From: a virus
Virus record (IMG/VR): IMGVR_UViG_3300048922_000436
Span: 1 to 40,625 of that record
Reading direction: 5' to 3' (one strand)
Length of the DNA: 40,625 nucleotides
The translations under genes were made by a program, and so were the position numbers. The notes beneath the pieces were generated by a model, which ran no database searches, was not told the DNA's origin, and saw only the letters and a program-made list of their open reading frames with translations. This document shows positions 6,812 to 29,097 of the stretch, piece by piece. Every line of letters starts with the position of its first letter. Positions within the stretch are counted from its first letter, which is position 1.

Positions 6812-7171
6812 TCATCTCATTAGCCAGCCGTTTCGCCGCAGGTTTTCGAGCAAGCGCCTATCTCCGATCGACTCAATTGAGCGACCGGTTATTTCGGCTA
6901 TCTGCTGGTTTGAATGGGTAAAAAAAAGAGCCAACTCTTGTTGGCTCCATTTGTCGCATGGCTTGATTAGATGCCGCCATTTTCGAAGCGGCTGCTTCTT
7001 GTTTCGGTAGTGAAGTGAAGTGCCACCGATACGCCTTAGCTTCAACCTGCGAGCCTCTCTAATGACTGCAGACTCGCTTCGTTCAAGCTTCCTTGCGATG
7101 ATTTCTACTTCCGTGTCTTTAGTTGCTTGCCGGAGATATTTTCTTTCGTAGTCCTGCCAGCGTTCTGACAT
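6812..7171 (-). CDS. Two-repeat SANT/HTH-like protein (119 aa)
   Basis: The protein holds two similar blocks, each opening with a Trp plus an acidic residue and ending in a putative recognition helix: RWQDYERKYLRQ ... EIIARKLERSESAVIREARRL (residues 4-45) and KWSQQELALFFTHSNQQIAEITGRSIESIGDRR (about 73-105). This suggests a small DNA-binding protein of Myb/SANT or GcrA-like style. GGAGG precedes the ATG. The second block is encoded across a strong intrinsic terminator on the same strand, so full-length mRNA should depend on antitermination. Binding target unknown. Confidence 0.72.
   Translation of the reverse strand: MSERWQDYERKYLRQATKDTEVEIIARKLERSESAVIREARRLKLRRIGGTSLHYRNKKQPLRKWRHLIKPCDKWSQQELALFFTHSNQQIAEITGRSIESIGDRRLLENLRRNGWLMR
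6919..6947 (-). terminator. Intrinsic terminator inside a coding region
   Basis: On the minus strand an uninterrupted 8-bp stem GAGCCAAC/GTTGGCTC with an AAGA loop is followed by eight T residues. It lies within the codons for WSQQELALFF of the 6812-7171 gene, in the transcribed direction. Its form is as good as any gene-end terminator in the window. Confidence 0.88.
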
Positions 7172-7174
7172 GGA

Positions 7175-7858
7175 TTACCTCCATTGATCACCGAACTTGA
7201 AGCCGATTTCTGCCAATGACTCGTCCATTTTTTCTATGAACTCAGGCACCATTTCGTTGAAATCTGACATGTACTTTTCATCGCGCTCGATGATGATGTG
7301 ATGTATTCCTTCTCGTTTCATGCGCGGGTCATAGTTGCCGAAATACCAGCCATCCTTACCGGTAACCCACATGCTGTATTGAACCTGGGCCATATACTCC
7401 GATTTTATTGCTTCAAGGCCACCAAGCAGGAACTTCATAAATACCGCGCTGGTGAAAGGGCATTTTAGTTCTAGCCCGCGCCCGTCGGAGCATAAACCGT
7501 CTGGGGAGCACGCAGTTCTCATTGCTTCGTCTCTGTAAAGTATCGGGGCCTCAATGACGCTTACGTTAGCCGTAAACTCGAATAGCCTCCGTGCCGATTC
7601 TTCATGCTGCTTTCCCCACGCCAGAGCTTTTGCGTTTACTTCAGGAGACTCGCCTGTGCATATTTCGCCAAGCAGCGTATAGAAATAGGTCTGTTTCATG
7701 TCAGGCCATTTCGTTCCGCTTCGTGGCTTTGATATGACTTTCGAAGCCTCTGATGCAGTGATTACTCCAAGCCTGAGACGATGCCATTCCGAGCTTCCTT
7801 GCTCAACTTGGTTGATGTCTATGCCAGTGCGCTGAAGAAGCATTTCAGAAGTGATCAT
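7175..7858 (-). CDS. exo: Lambda-type 5'-3' exonuclease (Red-alpha)
   Basis: This 227-aa protein matches lambda Exo almost from end to end as I recall it (lambda: 226 aa), for example [18 protein letters not shown]-like and [10 protein letters not shown] blocks and the shared C-terminal AEIGF...F...QWR. The catalytic residues of the YqaJ/lambda-exonuclease fold are present as D120, E130 and K132 (SPDG ... LELKCPF). It degrades the 5' strand of double-stranded DNA ends and loads its annealase partner. ATG 7858 overlaps the stop of the annealase gene, giving coupled translation of the pair. Confidence 0.97.
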
Positions 7859-8739
7859 GCTGCCACCTTGGTTCTCTTGATGAGGAAGTCATGCGCTTTA
7901 ACAGCCTCGACCTCCGTCAATTCAGATGCGGCCGTGATTGTGCGCCCGAAAATCTGAGAGCAAAGCGGCAGCATGTCGCCCCACGTTTTATCCATTTTTG
8001 TGAGAAGGTCGGTGATGTTTTGCAGGGTTTCTATCGCAGCGGGAGAGATGTCGCGCTCTTGGCTTCGTTCCTGGTTGAAGTTTATTCCTTCTCCGCCGTC
8101 GGTATTCATGTATTCAATTGCGGCATCTAATCGCTCAGCACGCGGCCAGTATTTGCTAGCCCGCTTGACGATTGTCTTACGCGCCATTTCCGCCCAGAAC
8201 GTCTTCCATGGGCCGTTCTTTGCCTTACTGGTAGCTTCGGTTGCCTTTATCTCTGCTAGGCTCATTTCTTCTGTGAGATAGTCTCCATCAGGAGTCTTAA
8301 CCGTGCAGTAGCCCCCTACCACTTCACCGCGTTCACCGAAAGCGTTGTACTTATGAGTAGGTGCGCTATCCAGCCCATTCGATTCGTAGGTGTCGTTCGA
8401 GTAAACCAGCTTGCACTGACCCCACTTAATTGACCCGGTAGCCTGAGCGAGGTGAAGCAGGCCCATATAGCTTATGTCTAGGCACACCATCCCATCGCGC
8501 GGAACGAGGTAGGCCAGCTTGCTGGCTGGGTTCAACGTGATACCAATTGCCGCTACGTTGATAATCGCGTTCTGCGCGCTCGCCGGATTCCCGATCGCCG
8601 TTTTCGTCAGGAAATCATTCTTCTGGAAAAGCTGCATCGCGAACTGGCTTTCCTTAGCCCATGTAACTGATTGGTCAGTCAGCGCTCCGCTAAATAGCGG
8701 CTCCTGCTGTTTCACGAATTCAATGATGCTGAAGCTCAT
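7855..8739 (-). CDS. RecT-core annealase with lambda Red-beta C-terminal domain
   Basis: A single-strand annealing protein of 294 aa. Residues about 30-215 are RecT-family: [61 protein letters not shown]. Residues 228-294 are instead those of the lambda Red-beta C-terminal domain as I remember it: ERDI-x-[21 protein letters not shown]-x-x-EAVKA and the final KVAA, about 42 of 67 positions identical by eye. In lambda that domain binds Exo. The start ATG 8739 (TGATG) is coupled to the upstream gene and the stop overlaps exo. A domain-swapped annealase matched to its lambda-type Exo is the simplest reading. Confidence 0.9.
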
Positions 8740-9041
8740 CACGCTACCTCGTCGTATCTGTGTTTGTTCCGGTATATCTCGACAGCCCGCTCACGCTTCA
8801 CAATCTCTGTCAGACAATCCCAAATCGCTTTGCTGGCTATCTCCTGAAACTCGGATGATTCAGTAGCCAGCGCGAATACCTCGGCTTCACAGTGCGGAAG
8901 ATGCTCTCTAAGCATTTTCTCCATGTAACCAATCCGCATCTGCTTATCGAGGCGCTCAACCTCTTCATAAACCGCTTCGTTATCTTCTTCAGTGAAAGTC
9001 GATACGATGCGCTCAATTTCGACGGCCTGTTGTGCGTTCAT
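8739..9041 (-). CDS. Unknown acidic protein in the gam position (100 aa)
   Basis: This is an acidic, fully helical-looking protein (RIVSTFTEEDNEAVYEEVERLDKQ ... MLREHLPHC). It does not match lambda Gam or what I recall of P22 Abc proteins. It sits exactly where lambda has gam: after cIII and the kil slot, before the annealase and exo, with overlapping start and stop codons on both sides. A RecBCD-modulating function is a positional guess only. Confidence 0.72.
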   Translation of the reverse strand: MNAQQAVEIERIVSTFTEEDNEAVYEEVERLDKQMRIGYMEKMLREHLPHCEAEVFALATESSEFQEIASKAIWDCLTEIVKRERAVEIYRNKHRYDEVA

Positions 9042-9154
9042 TTCGACCTCCAGGCTTGTTTAAGCTGAACCATAGCCATTGCCCACAATGCAGGACTGCG
9101 AAGCTGTATAGCGGCTCTGGCGGTGAACTGAGCGGTGTTGAATGGCTTATTCAT
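9038..9154 (-). CDS. 38-aa peptide in the kil position
   Basis: A 38-codon reading frame runs from ATG 9154, with AGAGG 6 nt upstream, to a TGA that overlaps the next ATG (ATGA). The start overlaps the cIII stop by 4 bases. The peptide is basic and amphipathic (MNKPFNTAQFTARAA ... MVQLKQAWRSK) with a hydrophobic centre. Lambda and P22 encode the division inhibitor Kil at this position; the sequence is not lambda Kil as I remember it, so the name is not applied. Confidence 0.7.
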   Translation of the reverse strand: MNKPFNTAQFTARAAIQLRSPALWAMAMVQLKQAWRSK

Positions 9155-9282
9155 GGTTCGCCTCTTTGATTAAGAGTGTCTTTCAACCACCGGCCAATAC
9201 AGCGCATCCGGCGGGTGATGATTTCGAGTAAGGTTTCGTTATGGCAGCCAGCAATAGGCCACCCTGCAACGGCATATTGCAT
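9151..9282 (-). CDS. cIII: CIII-like regulator
   Basis: The 43-aa product begins MQYAVAGWPIAGC, nearly the N-terminus of lambda CIII, followed by the amphipathic helix ETLLEIITRRMRCIGRWLKD that in lambda inhibits the FtsH protease and so stabilises CII. The start ATG 9282 is preceded by AGGAG. It is shorter than lambda CIII (54 aa) by the non-essential C-terminal tail. It lies behind an intrinsic terminator, consistent with N-dependent expression. Confidence 0.93.
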   Translation of the reverse strand: MQYAVAGWPIAGCHNETLLEIITRRMRCIGRWLKDTLNQRGEP

Positions 9283-9350
9283 GGTGATGCTCCTGTTGAT
9301 TGATAGGTATTCATTGCTGAACCAACTCGTAAATTGGCTTAGCGATGGGT

Positions 9351-9376
9351 AAAAAAATGGCCGCACAATGGCGGCC
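9351..9376 (-). terminator. Intrinsic terminator upstream of cIII
   Basis: Minus-strand stem GGCCGC/GCGGCC with a CATTGT loop, followed by A then seven T residues. It lies between the 69-aa gene and cIII, the kind of left-operon terminator that N antitermination must pass. Confidence 0.85.
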
Positions 9377-9438
9377 TAAAGGGTGTCGAGGCTTCTCTAA
9401 ACATCATCAAGCTCACACGGATATGAGCTTTGTGATGG

Positions 9439-9648
9439 TCAGTTATTGCGAGCCATCAGCATGGCGTCAGCCACCTGATAAGCGTAAGCAGAGACATTTA
9501 TGGCATTATGAAAACCACCTCTAGCAATTTCGCTTTTCATCACCTGTGCTGCGAAGTAATCACGCAACGTAATGCCTAATTCCTCCGTATTTTTTGATTC
9601 AATGCGGGGCGCACATGGAAACACTTGACCACCTGTTTCTTTACTCAT
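9439..9648 (-). CDS. Conserved small phage protein (69 aa)
   Basis: Starts at ATG 9648 (MSKETGGQVFPC). The core GITLRDYFAAQVMKSEI followed by YAYQVADAMLMAR is a motif common in small early proteins of enterobacterial phages, often placed near cIII. No function is known to me. The ATG overlaps the stop of the upstream 31-aa membrane peptide. Confidence 0.78.
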   Translation of the reverse strand: MSKETGGQVFPCAPRIESKNTEELGITLRDYFAAQVMKSEIARGGFHNAINVSAYAYQVADAMLMARNN

Positions 9649-19260: not shown

Positions 19261-19724
19261 ACAGGCTAACAGCAATCGCCATTGGCCTTATCGCTTGCCT
19301 GATAGTTTCGTTGGGATGGGCGGTCAACCATTACCGAGATAACGCCACCGAATACAAGCGTCAGCGCGATGAGAAAATCAATGCGCTGAATCAGGCCCGC
19401 ACTACCATCACTGATATGGAAACCAGAAAGCGCGATGTTGCCACGCTGGATGCCAAATACACCCAGGAGTTAGCGGATGCAAAAGCTAAAAATGATGCTC
19501 TGCAGCGCAAGCTTGATAATGGTGGCCGGGTGCTCGTCAAAGGCAAGTGTTCTGTGCCAGCCACAACCGAAACCGCCAGTTCCTCCGGCATGGGCGATGA
19601 TGCCGCCGTCGAACTCTCTTCAACTGCTGGACGAAACGTTCTCGGTATCAGAGCCGGGATCGTCAGCGACCAAACAGCACTGAAAGCGCTGCAGGAATAC
19701 ATCAACACGCAGTGTTTGAAATGA
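19257..19724 (+). CDS. Rz: Rz inner-membrane spanin
   Basis: This 155-aa type II membrane protein has an N-terminal signal anchor (residues 5-23, TAIAIGLIACLIVSLGWAV) then a long periplasmic coiled coil (YKRQRDEKINALNQARTTI ... AKNDALQRKL). It joins Rz1 across the periplasm to disrupt the outer membrane at lysis. The ATG overlaps the lysozyme stop. The Rz1 frame is embedded in it. Confidence 0.95.
   Translation: MNRLTAIAIGLIACLIVSLGWAVNHYRDNATEYKRQRDEKINALNQARTTITDMETRKRDVATLDAKYTQELADAKAKNDALQRKLDNGGRVLVKGKCSVPATTETASSSGMGDDAAVELSSTAGRNVLGIRAGIVSDQTALKALQEYINTQCLK
19477..19683 (+). CDS. Rz1: Rz1 outer-membrane lipoprotein spanin (embedded)
   Basis: Lies in a different frame wholly inside Rz. 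AGGAG sits 7 nt before ATG 19477. A lipoprotein signal (MMLCSASLIMVAGC) has its lipobox cysteine at residue 19; the mature part is proline-rich (CQPQPKPPVPPAW), the hallmark of Rz1. At 68 aa it is slightly longer than lambda Rz1 (60). Confidence 0.93.
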   Translation: MQKLKMMLCSASLIMVAGCSSKASVLCQPQPKPPVPPAWAMMPPSNSLQLLDETFSVSEPGSSATKQH

Positions 19725-19740
19725 ATTCCCCCGACAAGGA

Positions 19741-19857
19741 ATGAGACTGTGTTACCTAGCAGGAGGTGATCACGTCTTGGCAGCCGGAAAGACGGAAGTG
19801 GCGATGCAACTCCGAGAGGTGTGGCTGATGCTGCGGCTATATAAGGAGTTAATATGA
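19741..19857 (+). CDS. Possible 38-aa reading frame
   Basis: Between Rz and the 66-aa membrane gene a 38-codon frame begins at ATG 19741 (MRLCYLAGGDHVLAAGKTEV) and ends in a TGA overlapping the next ATG. The AAGGA lies directly against the start codon, too close for good initiation. It may be a coupled leader peptide or chance. The same stretch is purine-rich with several small inverted repeats. Confidence 0.3.
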   Translation: MRLCYLAGGDHVLAAGKTEVAMQLREVWLMLRLYKELI

Positions 19858-20054
19858 ATTTCAACAAGCCGCCGTCCTACGTAGTTATCAGGCCTGATTT
19901 GGCAGGCGTGTTGGTGTGCGTAAGGGCAGGATTTCTAAAGCGAATCATGTATCGGATTGCCTATCTATGTGAATGTTATATCCCTGTGGCGCTAATTTTC
20001 ACCACATGGATTACGCTCGTTTATTTCGGTGCCGAATATCTAAACAAACACTGA
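19854..20054 (+). CDS. Small membrane protein (66 aa)
   Basis: AAGGAG 7 nt before ATG 19854. A basic N-terminal part (NFNKPPSYVVIRPD ... VRAGFLKRIMYRI) is followed by a transmembrane helix at about residues 42-60 (YIPVALIFTTWITLVYF). It lies between lysis and packaging genes. Function is unknown. Confidence 0.62.
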   Translation: MNFNKPPSYVVIRPDLAGVLVCVRAGFLKRIMYRIAYLCECYIPVALIFTTWITLVYFGAEYLNKH

Positions 20055-20065
20055 CGGAGCCAATC

Positions 20066-20296
20066 ATGGCAATTACAGAAATGACCGAAGAGCAGGCAAT
20101 GAACCTTGAAGTTTTCAAACTGGTTCAGAGCGACACCGCTGCAGGTGAGAAGGCAATCACCTTTATCGGCGGCAACAAGCTCAAATACGAGCTGTTCAAA
20201 GATGCATATACGCGTGTGCAAACAGAGCCCGGCGTCGTCGGTCGCGTAGACAAGGCCATCAAGATGGCAGAAGAAGCGCTCGGCCTGTTTGGTTAG
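20066..20296 (+). CDS. Phage protein of unknown function (76 aa)
   Basis: Starts at ATG 20066 (MAITEMTEEQAMNLEVFK) after CGGAG. An all-helical acidic small protein ending AIKMAEEALGLFG. No recognised family. It heads the group of small genes before terminase. Confidence 0.68.
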   Translation: MAITEMTEEQAMNLEVFKLVQSDTAAGEKAITFIGGNKLKYELFKDAYTRVQTEPGVVGRVDKAIKMAEEALGLFG

Positions 20297-20357
20297 GGCG
20301 CTCCTCAAATTTGAGTAGCCTGATTTAATTGAAGAAACCTGAATGGCGAGGAAAGCT

Positions 20358-20507
20358 ATGCCACTGAAGAAAGGTAAGTCGAAAAAGGTCATCAGCGAGA
20401 ACATCGCCACTGAAGTTAAAGCTGGCAAGCCACAAGACCAGGCTATCGCCATTGCTATGAGCAAAGCCGGTAAAGGCAAGAAGAAACCAAAGAAAGGGGC
20501 TAAGTAA
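20358..20507 (+). CDS. Lys-rich small protein, DUF6496-like (49 aa)
   Basis: Starts at ATG 20358 ([20 protein letters not shown]) with GAGGAAA upstream and ends in a TAA overlapping the next ATG. The opening plus [19 protein letters not shown] and a poly-basic tail match a small phage family that I recall as DUF6496. It could bind DNA; function unknown. Confidence 0.72.
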
Positions 20508-20839
20508 TGGCAATCACATCCATGCAGACAGCAACTGCCGGTTCGGTCGCAAATCTGATCCCAGTGGTGAAGTCGCATATTGCAGCATCACGCTTCCCTC
20601 AAGGCGGCTTGGTTGGCGTTCATGCCACTCCTACCAAGACCGAGTATTTCCAGGTTGTTGCTGCCGGTGGCACCACAGCAACTGACTACGACATCGTGGT
20701 TAGCTCTGACCGTGCCGACTTCACCATTAAGTGCAACGCGAAGATCACCGCTGGCTTCCTGCCTCTTGGTGACATGAGCGTTATCCAGTTAACCCCTGGC
20801 CGTATGGTTGAGTACGCGCAGGCATTCACCAAGGCGTAA
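20507..20839 (+). CDS. Unknown protein before terminase (110 aa)
   Basis: Ala/Thr-rich and beta-rich (TATAGSVANLIPVVKSHIAA, GGLVGVHATPTKTEYFQVV, DYDIVVSSDRADFTIKC) with the look of a small virion or decoration protein. The start overlaps the upstream stop (TAATG). It lies 2 bp before terS. I do not recognise the family. Confidence 0.68.
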   Translation: MAITSMQTATAGSVANLIPVVKSHIAASRFPQGGLVGVHATPTKTEYFQVVAAGGTTATDYDIVVSSDRADFTIKCNAKITAGFLPLGDMSVIQLTPGRMVEYAQAFTKA

Positions 20840-20841
20840 GA

Positions 20842-21252
20842 ATGACACTGACAATTAAGCAAGAGGCTTTTTGTCAGGCATACATCGAAACTGGTAACGC
20901 ATCGGAGGCGTACCGGTCATCGTATGCCGCCGAAAACATGAAGCCAGATGCCATACACGTACAAGCCAGCAAATTACTCGATAACCCTAAGATCGCCCTA
21001 AGGGTGGCAGAACTGAGGGGTGAGATTAAAGAGCGTCACAGCGTGACAGTTGACTCGCTTTTGGCAGAACTCGAAGAAGCTCGACAGGCAGCCTTAACCG
21101 CTGAAACGCCGCAGTCTTCAGCCGCAGTGGCCGCAACCCTCGGTAAAGCAAAATTAACCGGGCTTGATAAGCAAATCATCGAGCATACTGGCCCAGGCGG
21201 CGGCGCTATCCAGATTGAAACATCACCAATGAGCACTCTATTCGGGAAATGA
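20842..21252 (+). CDS. terS: Terminase small subunit
   Basis: This 136-aa protein has a Terminase_2-type HTH N-terminus (TIKQEAFCQAYIETGNASEAYRSSYA) that recognises packaging-site DNA, then a helical oligomerisation region. The last 16 residues (AIQIETSPMSTLFGK) are those I recall at the end of Sf6 TerS, although the N-terminal domain is of a different type. That tail probably contacts TerL. It overlaps terL by 4 bases. Confidence 0.93.
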   Translation: MTLTIKQEAFCQAYIETGNASEAYRSSYAAENMKPDAIHVQASKLLDNPKIALRVAELRGEIKERHSVTVDSLLAELEEARQAALTAETPQSSAAVAATLGKAKLTGLDKQIIEHTGPGGGAIQIETSPMSTLFGK

Positions 21253-22664
21253 CAACGATTAACCATATCTTCCAACCGTTCATCAATGCGCATCGTTACA
21301 AGGTCGCTAAGGGCGGTCGAGGTAGCGGAAAGTCGTGGGCGATGGCTCGTTTGCTTATCGAGGCCGCAAGACGTCAGCCAGTGCGGATCCTGTGTGCTCG
21401 TGAGCTGCAGAACAGTATTAGTGATTCTGTAATCCGTTTGCTTGAAGACACAATCGAGCGAGAAGGATATGCAGCCGAGTTCGAAATTCAGCGTTCGATG
21501 ATTCGCCATCTTGGCACTAACGCTGAATTCATGTTCTACGGCATCAAGAACAACCCGACGAAGATTAAATCACTCGAAGGTATCGACATCTGCTGGGTAG
21601 AAGAGGCCGAGGCAGTAACGAAGGAATCATGGGATATTCTGATTCCAACTATCAGAAAGCCAAACTCTGAAATCTGGGTCAGTTTCAACCCGAAGAATAT
21701 TCTCGACGATACCTATCAGCGCTTCGTTGTCGACCATCCTGATGACATTTGTCTACTGACGGTTAACTACACTGATAACCCGCACTTTCCTGAGGTTCTC
21801 CGACTGGAGATGGAAGAATGCAAGCGGCGCAATCCAACTCTGCATCGTCACATCTGGCTCGGCGAGCCGGTAAGCGCAAGCGATATGGCAATCATCAAGC
21901 GTGAATGGCTGGAAGCGGCAACAGATGCTCACAAGAAGCTTGGCTGGAAAGCGCGAGGGGCAGTCGTTGCATCTCACGACCCATCAGACACCGGTCCGGA
22001 TGCCAAGGGTTACGCCATGCGCCATGGATCAGTAGTGAAGCGCATTGCTGAACTGCCAGAGCAGGTCGATGTGAACGATGGCGCAGATTGGGCGACTGGT
22101 CTGGCGATTAACGACGGTGCTGATCACTTCCTCTGGGATGGTGACGGTCTCGGCGCTGGTCTGCGTCGTCAGGTCACTGACTCATTCGCCGGAAAGAAGA
22201 TCACTGCGACCATGTTCAAGGGTAGCGAATCACCGTTCGATGAGGATGCTCCATACCAATCCGGGGCATGGGCTGATGAAGTGGTGCAGGGAGACAATAT
22301 CCGCACTATTGGCGATGTGTTCCGCAACAAGCGCGCACAGTTCTATTACACCCTGGCTGACAGGCTATATATGACGTACCGCGCCGTTGTACACGGTGAT
22401 TACGCAGACCCTGACAGCATGCTGAGCTTCGACAAGGAAGCTATCGGCGAGAAGATGCTTGAAAAGGCATTCGCTGAACTCTCGCAGATACAGCGCAAAT
22501 TCAATGGCAACGGAAAGCTTGAGCTTATGACTAAGGTAGACATGAAGCAAAAGCTTGGCATCCCGTCACCTAACCTGGCCGATGCCCTGATGATGTGCAT
22601 GCATTGTCCGACGATGGCGCCAGAAGAAACGGAAATCTACGTTCCCTCATCCTCCGGTTGGTAA
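21249..22664 (+). CDS. terL: Terminase large subunit (Sf6 gp2 type)
   Basis: This 471-aa packaging motor closely follows Sf6 gp2 (470 aa) as I recall it. Walker A is GGRGSGKS (residues 22-29), Walker B with catalytic glutamate is ICWVEEAE (114-121), and the RNase H-like nuclease acidic residues are in SHDPSDTGPD, FLWDGDG and SPNLADALMM. Packaging should be headful, as in Sf6 and P22. Confidence 0.97.
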   Translation: MTTINHIFQPFINAHRYKVAKGGRGSGKSWAMARLLIEAARRQPVRILCARELQNSISDSVIRLLEDTIEREGYAAEFEIQRSMIRHLGTNAEFMFYGIKNNPTKIKSLEGIDICWVEEAEAVTKESWDILIPTIRKPNSEIWVSFNPKNILDDTYQRFVVDHPDDICLLTVNYTDNPHFPEVLRLEMEECKRRNPTLHRHIWLGEPVSASDMAIIKREWLEAATDAHKKLGWKARGAVVASHDPSDTGPDAKGYAMRHGSVVKRIAELPEQVDVNDGADWATGLAINDGADHFLWDGDGLGAGLRRQVTDSFAGKKITATMFKGSESPFDEDAPYQSGAWADEVVQGDNIRTIGDVFRNKRAQFYYTLADRLYMTYRAVVHGDYADPDSMLSFDKEAIGEKMLEKAFAELSQIQRKFNGNGKLELMTKVDMKQKLGIPSPNLADALMMCMHCPTMAPEETEIYVPSSSGW

Positions 22665-22666
22665 AC

Positions 22667-24793
22667 ATGGCAGAGACATTAGAGAAAAAACATGAGCGCG
22701 TCATGCTCAGGTTTGACCGCGCCTATACGCCGCAGCAAGACGTGCGCGAAAAGTGCATCGAAGCTACGCGATTCGCTCGTGTCCCTGGCGGTCAATGGGA
22801 AGGAGCAACAGCAGCGGGAACTAAGCTTGACGACCAGTTCGAGAAATACCCGAAGTTCGAAATCAACAAGGTGGCCACTGAGCTTAACCGCATCATTGCT
22901 GAGTATCGGAACAACCGCATCACAGTTAAGTTTCGCCCAGGCGATCGCGAAGCAAGCGAAGAGCTGGCAAACAAGCTGAATGGCCTGTTTCGTGCAGATT
23001 ATGAAGAGACCGATGGCGGCGAGGCGTGCGACAACGCATTTGATGATGCGGCTACCGGTGGTTTTGGCTGCTTCCGCCTGACGTCTATGCTGGTCAATGA
23101 ATATGACCCGATGGACGAGCGCCAGCGCATTGCCATTGAGCCGGTATACGACCCATCTCGCTCGGTGTGGTTTGATCCTGATGCGAAGAAGTACGACAAG
23201 TCAGATGCGCTGTGGGCGTTCTGCATGTATTCGCTCTCGCCTGAGAAGTACGAGGCTGAATACGGCAAGACTCCGCCTGCGTCACTCGATGTAACTACGA
23301 TCTCCTCTTGGGAGTTTGACTGGTTCGAGCCAGAAGTCGTTTATATCGCCAAGTATTACGAAGTGCGCAAGGAATCGGTGGATGTTATCAGCTACCAGCA
23401 GCCACTGACTGGAGAGATCGCTACATACGACAGCGATCAAATCGAAGACATCGAGGATGAACTTGCTGAGGCTGGATTCGTAGAGGTTGCGCGCCGTTCC
23501 GTGAAGCGACGTCGCGTCTATGTGTCAGTGGTCGACGGCCAGAACTTCCTCGAGAAGCCGCGGCGCATTCCTGGTGAGCAAATCCCGCTCATCCCGGTAT
23601 ATGGCAAGCGCTGGTTTATCGACGATATTGAGCGTGTTGAAGGCCACATAGCCAAGGCCATGGACCCGCAACGACTCTACAACCTGCAGGTTTCGATGCT
23701 GGCTGATACGGCAGCTCAAGACCCTGGCCAGATTCCTATCGTCGGCATGGAGCAAATCAGAGGGCTCGAAAAACACTGGGAAGCGCGCAATAAGAAGCGT
23801 CCAGCGTTCCTTCCTCTGCGTGAGGTAAAGGATAAGGCAGGTAATATCATCGCCGGTGCTACGCCAGCAGGCTATACGCAGCCAGCAGTGATGAACCAGG
23901 CTTTAGCGGCTTTGTTGCAGCAGACCAGTGCTGACATTCAAGAAGTAACCGGCGGTAGCCAGGCAATGCAGCAGATGCCTAGCAACGTCGCGCAGGAAAC
24001 TGTTAACAACCTAATGAACCGCGCCGACATGGCATCGTTCATCTACCTGGACAATATGGCTAAGAGCCTGAAGCGTGCCGGTGAAGTCTGGCTGTCTATG
24101 GCTCGTGAGGTTTACGGCTCAGAGCGTGAAGTTCGCGTGGTTAACGAAGATGGCACCGATGACATCGCGCTGATGAATGCGCAGGTTGTTGACCGACAGA
24201 CTGGCCGAGTGATTGCACTGAATGACCTATCGACTGGCCGCTATGACGTTACTGTTGATGTCGGGCCAAGCTATACAGCAAGGCGCGACGCCACGGTTTC
24301 CGTGCTGACCAATGTCCTCAACTCTATGTTGCCAACCGATCCGCTTCGACCAGCCATCCAAGGAATCATCATGGATAACCTGGACGGAGAAGGGCTGGAA
24401 GACTTCAAAGAGTTCAACCGCAAGCAACTTCTGACCTCTGGTATCGCTAAGCCGCGAAATCAGGAAGAGCAGCAGATCGTCCAGCAGGCGCAAATGGCAG
24501 CTCAGAGCCAGCCTAACCCTGAAATGGTTCTGGCACAGGCGCAAATGGTTGCAGCTGAGGCTGAGAACAAGAAGGCTGATAACGCGACGCGTGAAACCGT
24601 CATTAAGGCGTTCACAGCCCAGCAGGATGCTCAGGAAAGTCAGGCTAACGTAGTCTACAAGCTTTCCCAGGCACAGAACATCAACAAGAAAGGGGTTATG
24701 GATGCAATTCAGCTCCTGAACGACCTTCTTAAATCCCAGCAAGAACAAATCCCCACATCACCACAGTCACCGGCAGACTCAATGCCGAGTTAA
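22667..24793 (+). CDS. Portal protein (P22 gp1 / Sf6 gp3 type)
   Basis: Starts at ATG 22667 (MAETLEKKHERVMLRFDRAY); at 708 aa it equals my memory of Sf6 portal. Recognisable P22-type segments include FARVPGGQWEG, DPEAKKYDKSDA-like DPDAKKYDKSDALWAF, and the Gln-rich C-terminal helix (QQIVQQAQMAAQ ... VVYKLSQAQNINKK) that forms the barrel seen in P22. It forms the dodecameric portal at the packaging vertex. Confidence 0.95.
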   Translation: MAETLEKKHERVMLRFDRAYTPQQDVREKCIEATRFARVPGGQWEGATAAGTKLDDQFEKYPKFEINKVATELNRIIAEYRNNRITVKFRPGDREASEELANKLNGLFRADYEETDGGEACDNAFDDAATGGFGCFRLTSMLVNEYDPMDERQRIAIEPVYDPSRSVWFDPDAKKYDKSDALWAFCMYSLSPEKYEAEYGKTPPASLDVTTISSWEFDWFEPEVVYIAKYYEVRKESVDVISYQQPLTGEIATYDSDQIEDIEDELAEAGFVEVARRSVKRRRVYVSVVDGQNFLEKPRRIPGEQIPLIPVYGKRWFIDDIERVEGHIAKAMDPQRLYNLQVSMLADTAAQDPGQIPIVGMEQIRGLEKHWEARNKKRPAFLPLREVKDKAGNIIAGATPAGYTQPAVMNQALAALLQQTSADIQEVTGGSQAMQQMPSNVAQETVNNLMNRADMASFIYLDNMAKSLKRAGEVWLSMAREVYGSEREVRVVNEDGTDDIALMNAQVVDRQTGRVIALNDLSTGRYDVTVDVGPSYTARRDATVSVLTNVLNSMLPTDPLRPAIQGIIMDNLDGEGLEDFKEFNRKQLLTSGIAKPRNQEEQQIVQQAQMAAQSQPNPEMVLAQAQMVAAEAENKKADNATRETVIKAFTAQQDAQESQANVVYKLSQAQNINKKGVMDAIQLLNDLLKSQQEQIPTSPQSPADSMPS

Positions 24794-24806
24794 CCAGGAG
24801 TAATCA

Positions 24807-25694
24807 ATGGAAAGCGAACTGATCATCGACGGTCAGGTTATTGACCTGTCTGAAAAACAGGAAGAAGCCGAAGAAGTAATCACTGAAGCAAAGGAGAATC
24901 CAGAGGATAAATCACAGGAAGAACCTGAGCAGAAAGAGAAAAAGGCCGAAAGTGAACAGCCCGAAGAGCAGCCAGAGGATTACTCACTGCAAATCGGTGA
25001 TGAGGAAATTAGCCTCAACCCTGAAGAAGACGATCACATTGATGGGCAACCAGCTCCTCAATGGGTGAAAGAGCTTCGCAAGGGATTCAAAGAAACTCAG
25101 AAAGAAAACCGGGAGCTACGCCGCCAGCTTGAGCAGATTCAATCCAAGCCAGCAGAAGCGCAGCAACCACAATCAGACGTCATTCCTCCAAAGCCGACCC
25201 TTGAGTCGTGCGAGTACGACGAAGCAGCGTTTGAGCAGGCGATGACTGATTGGCATGAGAAGAAAGGCCGTGCTGAGCAGGTTAAACAACAGCAGCAACG
25301 TCAGCAGCAGGAATTGCAGCAACGACTAACAGAGCGCCTTACGAAGCATCAGGAGCGAGCAGCAAAGCTTCCGGTGAAAGACTATCGCGAGATGGAAGAC
25401 ATCGTTCGCCAGGAGATTCCGGTTATCCAACAGGAAATCCTGATTCATGCCGCCGATGAAGGTTCTGAGCTCGTTGCGTATGCACTGGGCAAGAACCAAC
25501 AACTACGCCAGCGTGTAGCCGCTGAGACAGACCCAATTCGCGCAGCATTCCTCTTAGGCCAGATTAGCCAGCAAGTGAAGTTGGCACCGAAGCCCAAGAA
25601 AGCCATCAAACCAGAGCCGGAGGTTCGTGGTGGCGGCGCTGATGCGAAACAAGATGATTTCAACAAACTCTGCCCCGGCGCTAAAATCGAATAA
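24807..25694 (+). CDS. Scaffolding protein
   Basis: This 295-aa, highly charged, helical protein lies between portal and coat, as gp8 in P22. It has an acidic N-terminal half, a Gln-rich coiled coil (KQQQQRQQQELQQRL) and a basic tail (APKPKKAIKPEPE) typical of the coat-binding end. AGGAG precedes the ATG. Confidence 0.9.
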   Translation: MESELIIDGQVIDLSEKQEEAEEVITEAKENPEDKSQEEPEQKEKKAESEQPEEQPEDYSLQIGDEEISLNPEEDDHIDGQPAPQWVKELRKGFKETQKENRELRRQLEQIQSKPAEAQQPQSDVIPPKPTLESCEYDEAAFEQAMTDWHEKKGRAEQVKQQQQRQQQELQQRLTERLTKHQERAAKLPVKDYREMEDIVRQEIPVIQQEILIHAADEGSELVAYALGKNQQLRQRVAAETDPIRAAFLLGQISQQVKLAPKPKKAIKPEPEVRGGGADAKQDDFNKLCPGAKIE

Positions 25695-25705
25695 GGAACA
25701 GCTAA

Positions 25706-26980
25706 ATGGCTACCAATGATTTAAACAGTAACGTCAGTCAAATCGTCCTGAAAAAATTCCTGCCTGGTTTCATGTCCGACCTGGTATTGGCAAAGACCGT
25801 CGATCGTCAATTGCTGGCTGGGGAAATCAACTCCAATACCGGCGATAGCGTAAGCTTCAAACGTCCGCATCAGTTCTCATCTCTGCGCACTCCTACCGGC
25901 GACATCTCCGGGCAGGCGAAGAACAACCTGATTTCCGGTAAGGCAACTGGCCGCGTCGGCAACTACATCACTGTTGCCGTCGAGTATCAGCAACTGGAAG
26001 AGGCGATCAAGCTGAACCAGCTGGAAGAAATCCTGGCTCCGGTTCGTCAGCGCATCGTAACTGACCTGGAGACAGAGCTGGCCAAGTTCATGATGAACAA
26101 TGGCGCACTGGCTCTGGGTAGCCCTAACACCCCGATCAACAAATGGTCTGATGTGGCTCAAACCGCATCCTTCCTGAAGGATTTGGGCGTGGTTGAGGGA
26201 GAAAACTATGCGGTAATGGATCCGTGGTCTGCCCAGCGCCTGGCCGACGCGCAATCTGGTCTGCACGCCGCCGACCAACTGGTTCGCACCGCCTGGGAAA
26301 ACGCGCAGATCTCCACTAACTTCGGCGGCATTCGCGCGCTGATGTCTAACGGCCTGGCATCCCGCACGCAAGGTGCGTTCGGTGGTACGCTTACGGTGCA
26401 AACCGCTCCGACCGTGACCTATAACGCGGTGAAAGACACTTACCAATTCCAGGTAACACTGACCGGCGCAACTGCATCTGTAACTGGCTTCCTGAAAGCT
26501 GGCGACCAGATTAAGTTCACCAACACCTACTGGCTGCAGCAGCAGAGCAAGCAGGTCCTGTATAACGGCTCTGCACCTATCAGCTTCACTGCAACCGTTC
26601 TGGCCGATGCAAACTCCACCGCAGGCGGCGCGGTTACAGTTACGCTGTCCGGCGTTCCGATTTACGACACCACCAACCCACAATACAACGCAGTAAGCCG
26701 TCAGGTTGCAGCGGGTGACGCGGTGACTGTAATCGGCACTGCAAGCCAGACCATGAAGCCGAACCTGTTCTACAACAAGTTCTTCTGCGGCCTGGGTACC
26801 ATTCCTCTGCCAAAACTGAACAGCATCGACTCTGCAGTAGCAACTTACGAAGGCTTCTCTATCCGCGTACACAAATACTCGGACGGCGATGCAAACGTAC
26901 AGAAAATGCGCTTCGACCTGCTGCCAGCCTACGTGTGCTTCAACCCACACATGGGAGGCCAGTTCTTCGGCAATCCGTAA
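25706..26980 (+). CDS. Major coat protein (P22/Sf6 type)
   Basis: This 424-aa HK97-fold coat protein begins ATNDLNSNVSQIVLKKFLPG, has the P22-type VGNYITVAVEYQQLEEAI segment, and an inserted domain at about residues 225-350 rich in Thr/Val strands (VTLTGATASVTGFLKAGDQI) like the P22 I-domain. It ends AYVCFNPHMGGQFFG. It is followed by an intrinsic terminator. Codon choice here is more biased than in its neighbours, as expected for the most abundant virion protein. Confidence 0.95.
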   Translation: MATNDLNSNVSQIVLKKFLPGFMSDLVLAKTVDRQLLAGEINSNTGDSVSFKRPHQFSSLRTPTGDISGQAKNNLISGKATGRVGNYITVAVEYQQLEEAIKLNQLEEILAPVRQRIVTDLETELAKFMMNNGALALGSPNTPINKWSDVAQTASFLKDLGVVEGENYAVMDPWSAQRLADAQSGLHAADQLVRTAWENAQISTNFGGIRALMSNGLASRTQGAFGGTLTVQTAPTVTYNAVKDTYQFQVTLTGATASVTGFLKAGDQIKFTNTYWLQQQSKQVLYNGSAPISFTATVLADANSTAGGAVTVTLSGVPIYDTTNPQYNAVSRQVAAGDAVTVIGTASQTMKPNLFYNKFFCGLGTIPLPKLNSIDSAVATYEGFSIRVHKYSDGDANVQKMRFDLLPAYVCFNPHMGGQFFGNP

Positions 26981-26983
26981 TCA

Positions 26984-27010
26984 AGAGGGGCTTCGGCCCC
27001 TTTATTTTTT
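26984..27010 (+). terminator. Intrinsic terminator after the coat gene
   Basis: Stem AGGGGC/GCCCCT with a TTCG tetraloop, followed by TTTATTTTTT. It lies inside the late operon, so it probably lowers downstream expression relative to coat rather than ending it when Q is present. Confidence 0.85.
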
Positions 27011-27019
27011 GGAGGCGAA

Positions 27020-27205
27020 ATGGATCGCATGAGCATCTTTATGGCTGCCGATAACGAGGCTGGCCATGTTCAGGCTGTAATCGCAGAGAAAGACTTCCCA
27101 ATTTACGAAAAGCTCGGCTTTGTGGCTTCCGTTGACGACATCAAGCCGGTTGTTAAACGTGGGCGTAAGGCGGCTGACAATGGCAACGACTCTGACAAAG
27201 GGTGA
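27020..27205 (+). CDS. Small late protein (61 aa)
   Basis: GGAGG before ATG 27020. The product (MDRMSIFMAADNEAGHVQAV ... FVASVDDIKPVVKRGRKAAD) has a short alpha/beta body and a basic tail. Small genes of this kind lie between coat and gp4 in P22-like phages. It overlaps gp4 by 26 bases. Function is unknown. Confidence 0.72.
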   Translation: MDRMSIFMAADNEAGHVQAVIAEKDFPIYEKLGFVASVDDIKPVVKRGRKAADNGNDSDKG

Positions 27206-27662
27206 GATCGTCTTATTCGCTCTCAGAAAACCCGCAGTAGCTTCAAACGCAACTCTAACTGATGTAGAGCCTCAATCTGTCGAGGATGCCATTCATGACC
27301 TCGAAGACATGATGGCCGAGTGGATGATCAATCCCGGTAACGTCGGTTATTTGTTCGCGGCGGATGGCGAGGAGCCGTTACCAGACGATGACTCTGGACT
27401 GCCACGCAAATACAAACATGCAGTTGGCTATCAGCTAATCCTTCGCATGCTGTCTGATTATGGCGTAGAGCCATCGCCTCAAGTTCTGACTAATGCTCAG
27501 CGCTCATATGACGCGCTTCTGACTGACACTCTCGTTGTTCCGTCGATGCGCCGTCGCGGAGATTTCCCGCTTGGGCAAGGCAACAAATACGATGTGTTTA
27601 CCATCGACCGATATTACCCAGGCGATCTTCCCCCGATTGACGGCGATATTCCAAATCAGTAG
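27180..27662 (+). CDS. Head completion / tail accessory protein gp4
   Basis: Starts at ATG 27180 (MATTLTKGEIVLFALRK); 160 aa against 166 for P22 gp4. The helical body (QSVEDAIHDLEDMMAEWM ... YLFAADGEEPLPDDDSGLP ... YKHAVGYQLILRML) is that of the adaptor that binds the portal. P22 gp4 also has reported muralytic activity; no catalytic residue is obvious here. Confidence 0.93.
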   Translation: MATTLTKGEIVLFALRKPAVASNATLTDVEPQSVEDAIHDLEDMMAEWMINPGNVGYLFAADGEEPLPDDDSGLPRKYKHAVGYQLILRMLSDYGVEPSPQVLTNAQRSYDALLTDTLVVPSMRRRGDFPLGQGNKYDVFTIDRYYPGDLPPIDGDIPNQ

Positions 27663-27669
27663 GTGACTC

Positions 27670-29097
27670 ATGCCAATCCAAAAGCTGCCATTAGCCAAAG
27701 GCCTTGGCAAAGACTACCGCAATGCTGATTACGTCGATTTACTGCCTGTGAACATGCTGGCGACGCCGAAAGAGGTTCTGAATGCATCTGGATACCTTCG
27801 ATCTTTCCCCGGCGTAGAAAAGCGCTCAGACGTTGCTGGGGTGTCTCGCGGTGTTGAGTACAACACGGTCCAAAATATTCCATATCGTGTTGCCGGAGGG
27901 AAGATCTATCGAGGTAATAATGAGCGTGGAGATGTTGAAGGTGGTACTCGCGTAAGTATGGCTCATAGTGCCATTAGTCAGGCGGTAGCGGCCAATGGAG
28001 TGATGACGCTTTATCGGTACGATGGCACGAATAAGACCCTGGATAACTGGCCGCCAAATGTAGGCGGAACTGACTTTGCTCAATACGACATCGGCGTCGT
28101 CAGAGACATCTGCCGGGCGCGCGGACGCTATGTATGGGTTAAGGATGGCACTCAGACTTTCGGCGTAACAGACCTTGAAGACGAATCACACCCTGACCGA
28201 TTCCGCCCGTTCTATACGGCAGAAAGCCAGCCTGATGGAATTATTGGATGCGGCGTGTGGCGTGATTTTGTTGTGATGTTTGGCAGCAGCACTATCGAGT
28301 ATTTTTCTCTGACTGGAGCTGCAGATACATCTGCGGCAATTTACGTAGCCCAGCCATCACTGATGGTGCAGAAGGGGATTGCCGGTACTTATTGCAAAGC
28401 TGAATTCATGGACTCGTTCGCCTTCATTAGCCATCAGTCTACTGGCGCGCCATCCATCTACATGATCAACAACGGCCAGGCTTCGCAGATCGCCACTGCA
28501 ACAGTGGAGAAGGTATTGCGTAGCTACACGGCTGACGAGCTGGCTACTTGCGTGCTGGAGTCAATTCGGTTTGATAGTCATGAGCTGCTGATCGCCCACC
28601 TCCCTCGCCACGTCCTGTGTTATGACGCCACCGCCAGCCAGAGCGGGCCGCAATGGAGCATTTTGAAAACTGGACTCTTCGATGACGTGCATCGCGCCAT
28701 TGATTATGTGTTTGAAGGTAATCAGGTAACGGCGGGGGATAAGTTAGAGGCTGTCACCGGCGCGCTTAAATTCGACTCATCTGCACAATACGACAAGCAA
28801 GCTGAGCATTTGCTTTTCACACCGATGTTTAAAGCCGATAACGCCAGGGTGTTCGACTTTGAGCTCGAATCAGCAACTGGCGTGTCTCAGTGGGCGGAGC
28901 GTCTTTTCATCTCCGCGACTGTTGATGGCTCAAACTACGGCCGAGAGCAAATGGTCGATTACAACGCGCCATTCATCTACGACAAGCGAGCTATCTGGCG
29001 TCGAATTGGTCGCGTCAGGAAAAACATCGGCTTCAAGGTGCGTGTGATTACCCGCTCTCCAGTAACTCTGTCTGACTGCTCACTGAGGATTGAATGA
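27670..29097 (+). CDS. Tail accessory protein gp10 (hub)
   Basis: This 475-aa protein aligns by eye with P22 gp10 (472 aa) along its length: DYLPVNMLATPKE-type start, SRGVEYNTVQN, TDLEDESHPDRFRP, AESQPDGIIG, VAQPSLMVQKGIAGTYCK, RFDSHELLIAHLPRHVL, EHLLFTPMFKADNARVF. It closes the head and seats the tail needle and tailspikes. Confidence 0.97.
   Translation: MPIQKLPLAKGLGKDYRNADYVDLLPVNMLATPKEVLNASGYLRSFPGVEKRSDVAGVSRGVEYNTVQNIPYRVAGGKIYRGNNERGDVEGGTRVSMAHSAISQAVAANGVMTLYRYDGTNKTLDNWPPNVGGTDFAQYDIGVVRDICRARGRYVWVKDGTQTFGVTDLEDESHPDRFRPFYTAESQPDGIIGCGVWRDFVVMFGSSTIEYFSLTGAADTSAAIYVAQPSLMVQKGIAGTYCKAEFMDSFAFISHQSTGAPSIYMINNGQASQIATATVEKVLRSYTADELATCVLESIRFDSHELLIAHLPRHVLCYDATASQSGPQWSILKTGLFDDVHRAIDYVFEGNQVTAGDKLEAVTGALKFDSSAQYDKQAEHLLFTPMFKADNARVFDFELESATGVSQWAERLFISATVDGSNYGREQMVDYNAPFIYDKRAIWRRIGRVRKNIGFKVRVITRSPVTLSDCSLRIE

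What the first reader, a model, noticed from the sequence alone, without database searches (positions are those of the whole stretch)
7855..8739. Annealase is a RecT core fused to the lambda Red-beta Exo-binding domain
Residues 1 to about 220 read as RecT family, a group distinct from Red-beta. Residues 228-294 read as the C-terminal domain of lambda Red-beta, about 42 of 67 positions identical by eye to the sequence I remember, including [15 protein letters not shown] and a final KVAA. The next gene is a near-lambda Exo. In lambda that C-terminal domain is what binds Exo and SSB. The parsimonious reading is a natural domain swap: the annealing core was replaced while the partner-docking module was kept, so a foreign annealase still works with lambda-type Exo.
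Basis: partly seen in the sequence, partly recalled or inferred. Interest (0 to 1): 0.88.

Follow-up and report, generated by a model that had tools for sequence, protein, structure and literature searches.

The report
RecT annealase with lambda docking tail
This phage's DNA-annealing protein has a RecT-type working part joined to the small tail by which phage lambda's annealing protein grips its partner nuclease; sister phages show that tail and nuclease were swapped in together as one cassette, which suggests phages change recombination partners by trading the docking tail.

Summary
Residues 31-201 match RecT (PF03837, 4e-31). Residues 227-294 match lambda Red-beta's C-terminal domain (CTD; 42 of 68 identical; 9e-18 to 8tfu) and are modelled as the same three-helix bundle (rmsd 0.5-0.8 A to 6m9k/8tfu). 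The next gene is a 75% lambda Exo.

The architecture is not unique: phi80 Rec, ENT47670, Midgardsormr38, CobraSix and prophages share it. Lambda-type CTDs sit on RecT, Bet, phrog_2449, ERF and one unclassified core; of about 194 distinct proteins, all but one (a broken locus) lie beside lambda-type Exo. RecT cores with another tail lie beside a Mu-Gam/Gp157-like gene (107/107); nine such records searched encode no YqaJ-family Exo.

Sister contigs L180-L183 are about 91-95% identical in DNA on both sides, but core end (~8117) to exo stop (~7171) is replaced. CTD-Exo binding is inferred, not shown. Shuffling of Red-beta-CTD-like domains among annealases was already proposed (PMC8093625); the close version, pairing rule and cassette junctions appear new.

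The parts
7855..8739 (-). Annealase gene, 294 aa (stop 7855-7857): RecT core + flexible linker + Red-beta-type CTD
   Evidence: AF2 model pLDDT 84, residues 213-228 below 50
8104..8739 (-). RecT-type annealing core, residues 1-212
   Evidence: PF03837 31-201, phrog_148 6-237; Foldseek to 7ub2 2.6e-8
8056..8103 (-). Flexible linker, residues 213-228
   Evidence: pLDDT < 50
7858..8055 (-). Lambda Red-beta-type C-terminal docking domain, residues 229-294 (three helices 236-248, 253-264, 276-293)
7175..7858 (-). Lambda-type exonuclease gene, 227 aa, 75% to lambda Exo; overlaps the annealase stop (ATGA)
   Evidence: E86, D120, K132, W25, R29 kept
7171..8117 (-). Exchanged cassette (last codons of core, linker, CTD, exo) relative to sister contigs L180-L183, which hold a Gam-type tail and a Gp157/Mu-Gam-like gene here; edges approximate to about 10-30 bp
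8117..9443 (-). Shared backbone upstream of the cassette (91-93% DNA identity to L180, L181), includes the annealase core and the 100-aa phrog_3486 gene 8739-9041
6820..7171 (-). Backbone resumes (93-95% to L180-L183) in the next gene, 119 aa, 6812-7171

Best explanation
A phage single-strand annealing protein whose DNA-annealing core is of RecT type and whose C-terminal three-helix domain is the lambda Red-beta docking module. Proposed working: Exo resects dsDNA ends 5'-3'; the CTD holds the annealase on Exo so the core is loaded onto the new 3' strand, and the same CTD can then bind host SSB to bring the filament to ssDNA at the fork. Shown here: domain make-up, matching folds, strict pairing of the CTD with lambda-type Exo across five core types, and an exact cassette exchange (tail + partner gene) against sister phages. 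Inferred from lambda: Exo and SSB binding, and loading. Inferred from the tree: a resident RecT core changed partner by acquiring CTD+Exo in place of another tail and a Mu-Gam/Gp157-like gene, probably by homeologous crossovers in the conserved KYWPRxERLD codons and at the start of the next gene.
For: Domains and folds. Pairing, distinct proteins over 516 loci: RecT+CTD 76/76 next to Exo, phrog_2449 core 57/57, Bet core 54/55 (L356 is a broken locus), ERF core 4/4 (PF04404 8.5e-25 to 2.4e-22, three proteins tested), one unclassified core 2/2; RecT + Gam tail 107/107 next to Mu-Gam/Gp157-like. Loci fetched by core alone: 77 Gam+MuGam, 3 CTD+Exo, no mixed pair. YqaJ Exo: one each in window, L020, phi80 and Midgardsormr38, none in 9 Gam-tail phage records plus L180 fragment. 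Cassette. Mixing of cores on the Exo tree: 15 changes, at least 8 forced by supported branches. 71 pairs have Exo >=92% identical under different cores, 81 have Exo >=92% with CTD <70%: crossovers fall on both sides of the CTD, yet an annealase beside lambda-type Exo always had a lambda-type CTD. Nearest tested relative: deleting recT of phi80 (same architecture) lowers recombination of diverged DNA (PMC3945230). Heterotypic RecT/Red-alpha pairs do not work (PMC5052646), so a change of docking is expected to be needed.
Against: No binding or complex was modelled or measured. CTD residue 253, needed for SSB binding in lambda (PMC8303780), is R here (K or R in all 74 distinct units). Without the two divergent Exo clades the partial correlation CTD-Exo given core is 0.29, no stronger than core-Exo given CTD, 0.33. 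Only 2-3 phylogenetically independent tail switches exist among RecT cores, too few for a sign test. Scans were capped (best 80 of up to 600 candidates each), so the counts are a sample, mostly from enterobacteria.
Confidence: 0.8

Rival explanations
1. Hitchhiking: the CTD travels with Exo only because its codons adjoin exo; no docking constraint is needed.
For: CTD codons overlap the exo start; one cassette carries both; fine-scale CTD-Exo coupling is weak within the common Exo clade.
Against: Crossovers between CTD and Exo are frequent (81 pairs with Exo >=92% and CTD <70%), yet the incoming annealase, even ERF (L514 versus L029: Exo 99.6%, CTD 59%), carries a lambda-type CTD. The sliding Mantel correlation with Exo steps up at the domain boundary (about 0.4-0.55 over most of the core, 0.80-0.90 over the CTD) and does not rise gradually towards exo.
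Confidence: 0.08
2. Common descent, no swap: the CTD is an ancient part of the whole RecT/Red-beta/ERF superfamily and was simply kept in this RecT lineage, conserved because Exo is conserved.
For: Remote CTD homologues sit on Vibrio, Aeromonas and Pseudoalteromonas RecT proteins beside more distant Exo (HH-align probability 93%; SL25 4e-11); Red-beta-CTD-like domains are reported on several annealase families (PMC8093625).
Against: For window the ranking reverses between parts: L184 core 91%, CTD 26%, Exo 54%; L020 core 45%, CTD 84%, Exo 93%. Sharp junctions against L180-L183, and mixing of core types on the Exo tree. Deep ancestry and later swapping are compatible, so this rival is wrong only as a denial of exchange.
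Confidence: 0.05
3. The CTD serves mainly SSB targeting; adjacency to Exo is incidental to its conservation.
For: In lambda K214 and K253 of the CTD matter for SSB-dependent recombination (PMC8303780); position 214 is K in 60 of 74 and position 253 is K/R in 74 of 74 distinct units.
Against: Gam-tail phages also infect enterobacteria and would also meet host SSB, yet lack the CTD exactly where Exo is lacking.
Confidence: 0.07

Closest known systems
phi80 Rec (RecT-phi80) + Exo
   Same: RecT core, Red-beta-type CTD, directly followed by lambda-like Exo; window 57% identical over residues 1-286
   Different: Core about 60%, CTD 53%, Exo 76% identical; phi80 has gamL just upstream, window a 100-aa phrog_3486 gene. 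In the passages read its make-up is not described as mixed (PMC3945230 gives 32% identity with Red-beta)
Lambda Red-beta (Bet) + lambda Exo
   Same: CTD (42/68 identical, same fold) and Exo (75%)
   Different: Annealing core is only 25% identical and belongs to another subfamily (phrog_252 versus phrog_148)
HK639/HK140/EC.P3-type RecT with Gam tail
   Same: RecT core 74-87% identical
   Different: Unrelated ~80-aa tail, next gene Mu-Gam/Gp157-like, no YqaJ Exo in the record
Redb-CTD-like domains on Sak4/RecT/Erf annealases (PMC8093625)
   Same: Idea of the domain being shuffled between annealase families
   Different: There a remote homologue, read as a DNA-binding HTH; here a close lambda-type CTD with a strict Exo partner and mapped junctions

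Membership tests
RecT (PF03837 / phrog_148) | Profile match over the annealing core above the curated cut-off | tested here: met
   108.6 bits against a cut-off of 24, residues 31-201; phrog_148 5.6e-78
RecT (PF03837 / phrog_148) | RecT-type annealing fold | tested here: met
   AF2 model to Listeria phage RecT 7ub2, Foldseek 2.6e-8, though TM 0.42/0.59 and rmsd 6.2 A
RecT (PF03837 / phrog_148) | Anneals ssDNA | not testable with these tools
   No assay; inferred from family
Red-beta / Bet (phrog_252) | Bet-type annealing core | tested here: not met
   Residues 1-225 give no phrog_252 match; 25% identity to the lambda core
Red-beta / Bet (phrog_252) | Red-beta CTD | tested here: met
   9.2e-18 to 8tfu, 1.7e-15 to 6m9k, 42/68 identical, rmsd 0.5-0.8 A
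Red-beta / Bet (phrog_252) | CTD binds lambda Exo and SSB | not testable with these tools
   K214 kept, K253 is R; no complex modelled
Lambda exonuclease (PF09588) | YqaJ domain and catalytic residues (lambda E85, D119, K131) | tested here: met
   8.6e-30; E86, D120, K132 present; residues named in PMC7496540
Lambda exonuclease (PF09588) | Ring-shaped trimer, 5'-3' resection | not testable with these tools
   Only inferred from 75% identity to lambda Exo

The most novel reading that the evidence does not exclude
Phage annealases change partners by trading one cassette, docking tail plus partner gene, under an unchanged core. The Gam-type tail would then be a second docking module, specific for a Mu-Gam/Gp157-like end-binding protein: an annealase loading system that works without its own exonuclease.
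Probability: 0.4. Interest if true: 0.72.

Novelty: new variant of a known kind. Interest (0 to 1): 0.55.

Why it matters
[quoted passage not shown] Window and L180-type phages form a natural near-isogenic pair that, over this stretch, differs in tail plus partner gene alone, so the question 'does the tail decide the partner?' can be tested directly. The ERF fusions extend the rule to another annealase class. If right, a short tail would let recombineering annealases be matched to a chosen exonuclease.

Tried and rejected
Pfam cannot separate RecT from Red-beta: both are PF03837, so PHROGs and identity were used. The strong CTD-Exo Mantel correlation (0.89) is carried by two divergent clades; without them the effect is small, so the argument rests on categorical pairing and junctions. 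An apparent RecT+CTD case without Exo (L025) was a start-codon artefact; Exo is there. L356 and L306 are broken Bet loci. Lambda contigs in unrelated genomes (L266-L272) look like contamination; they are Bet-type and do not bear on the RecT counts. A sliding scan of Exo for a CTD-coupled patch gave nothing clear. The ERF model has a low-confidence core (pLDDT 59, three sequences), though its CTD matches 6m9k/8tfu. A sample of 395 genomes of the order of the Photorhabdus locus found the CTD query in only 3. A phylogenetically independent-pairs test had too few pairs. Caldwell 2019 and Iyer 2002 are not in the library, so the crystallographic interface residues were not checked.

Full report
WHAT IS THERE. 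The finding lies on the minus strand. The 294-aa annealase gene runs from 8739 down to 7855 and overlaps the start of a 227-aa exonuclease gene (7858 to 7175) by 4 bp. Residues 31-201 match RecT (PF03837, 3.9e-31; phrog_148, 5.6e-78), and residues 226-294 on their own match the solved lambda Red-beta CTD (8tfu 9.2e-18; 6m9k 1.7e-15). Aligned globally, residues 227-294 share 42 of 68 positions with lambda Bet, while the cores share about 25%. The AF2 model has two domains joined by a low-confidence linker at 213-228; Foldseek places the core on Listeria phage RecT (7ub2, 2.6e-8) and the tail on 8tfu/6m9k at 0.5-0.8 A rmsd. The exonuclease is 75% identical to lambda Exo and keeps E86, D120, K132, W25 and R29, equivalent to lambda residues named in PMC7496540.

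NOT A ONE-OFF. The same architecture is in phi80 Rec, ENT47670, Midgardsormr38, CobraSix and PhiR12_3, each followed by a lambda-type Exo. Over 516 loci fetched by CTD, by Exo, by core or by the alternative tail, distinct proteins sort without a mixed pair: RecT core + CTD 76/76 next to Exo; phrog_2449 core + CTD 57/57; Bet core + CTD 54/55 (the exception, L356, is a broken locus); ERF core + CTD 4/4; an unclassified core (L374, L375) + CTD 2/2; RecT core + 'Gam tail' 107/107 next to a Mu-Gam/Gp157-like gene. ERF identity was checked with Pfam for three of the four. Of records searched for YqaJ nucleases, the four with the CTD have one each and those with the Gam tail have none; some of the latter are contig fragments, but five are phage genomes from GenBank.

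A NATURAL CASSETTE SWAP. Window and contigs L180-L183 are about 91-95% identical in DNA upstream (for L180 from 9443 down to 8117, that is to about codon 208 of the annealase) and again from 7171-7181 down to 6820; in between identity falls to background. In L180-L183 that interval holds the Gam tail and the Gp157/Mu-Gam-like gene; in window it holds CTD and Exo. Both edges fall in sequence that also resembles the CTD+Exo phage L020 (KYWPRxERLD codons; start of the next gene), so homeologous crossover, which phage annealases are known to promote (PMC3945230), is a reasonable route (inference). In a DNA tree of cores, window groups with five Gam-tail phages at 100/100, and an AU test rejects all Gam-tail cores forming one clade (p 0.008). 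The simplest reading is that a resident core gained CTD+Exo.

WHY DOCKING RATHER THAN MERE LINKAGE. On the Exo tree the core type changes 15 times, at least 8 forced by supported branches. 81 pairs have Exo >=92% but CTD <70% identical, so crossovers between CTD and Exo happen, and whole annealases of other families have been brought in (L514 ERF versus L029 RecT: Exo 99.6%, CTD 59%), yet the newcomer always had a lambda-type CTD. Within RecT-core proteins the Mantel correlation with Exo is about 0.4-0.55 over most of the core (lower, 0.17-0.27, in the first 30-40 residues and one other window) and 0.80-0.90 over the CTD, but this is carried by two divergent clades; without them the partial correlations are 0.29 (CTD) and 0.33 (core). 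Independent tail switches among RecT cores are only 2-3. The case therefore rests on the pairing rule and the junctions, not on the correlation.

MECHANISM. Shown: domain architecture, folds, pairing, cassette. Inferred from lambda work: the CTD binds Exo and SSB and loads the annealase on the 3' overhang (PMC7496540, PMC8303780). K214 is kept and position 253 is R (basic in all 74 distinct units). The nearest relative tested in vivo, phi80 RecT, is active in recombination of diverged sequences (PMC3945230).

PRIOR KNOWLEDGE. [quoted passage not shown] I also find remote CTD homologues on Vibrio, Aeromonas and Pseudoalteromonas RecT proteins beside more distant Exo, so the domain is old. What I did not find described, in a library limited to open-licence papers, is the close lambda-type CTD on RecT and ERF cores with a strict Exo partner, and the tail-plus-partner cassette exchange. 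Hence: new variant of a known kind.

LIMITS. Collection scans were capped and biased to enterobacterial phages; the counts are not independent observations; no complex could be modelled; the paper with the crystallographic interface was not available; the direction of the swap rests on a tree in which some branches are weak.

Noticed in passing
L180-L183; L010-L014, L016, L017: A second, unrelated ~80-aa tail (begins EPVMPH, ends about VQAIYxxCKAKLE) on the same RecT core is always followed by a Mu-Gam/Gp157-like gene (PF05565); possibly another docking tail.
   Followed up: partly
L277:1243-1995, L288:2443-3198, L289:2395-3201, L514:898-1704: ERF-family annealases carrying the lambda-type CTD next to lambda-type Exo, the first in Photorhabdus.
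   Followed up: yes
L374 and L375:2226-3008: An annealase-like core with no Pfam match carrying a divergent CTD next to a divergent lambda-type Exo.
   Followed up: partly
L376: Exo looks mosaic: its C-terminal half is about 81% identical in DNA to window's exo (7537-7175), while the protein as a whole is about 52% identical; suggests a crossover inside exo.
   Followed up: no
window 19316-27866: Head and packaging genes are 78-80% identical to HK620/Sf6-type (P22-like) phages, so this is a lambdoid short-tailed phage with a RecT/Exo module.
   Followed up: no
L266-L272: Near-identical lambda-like contigs (several about 48.5 kb) in genomes of Streptomyces, Neobacillus, Shewanella and others: probable lambda contamination of public assemblies.
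   Followed up: no
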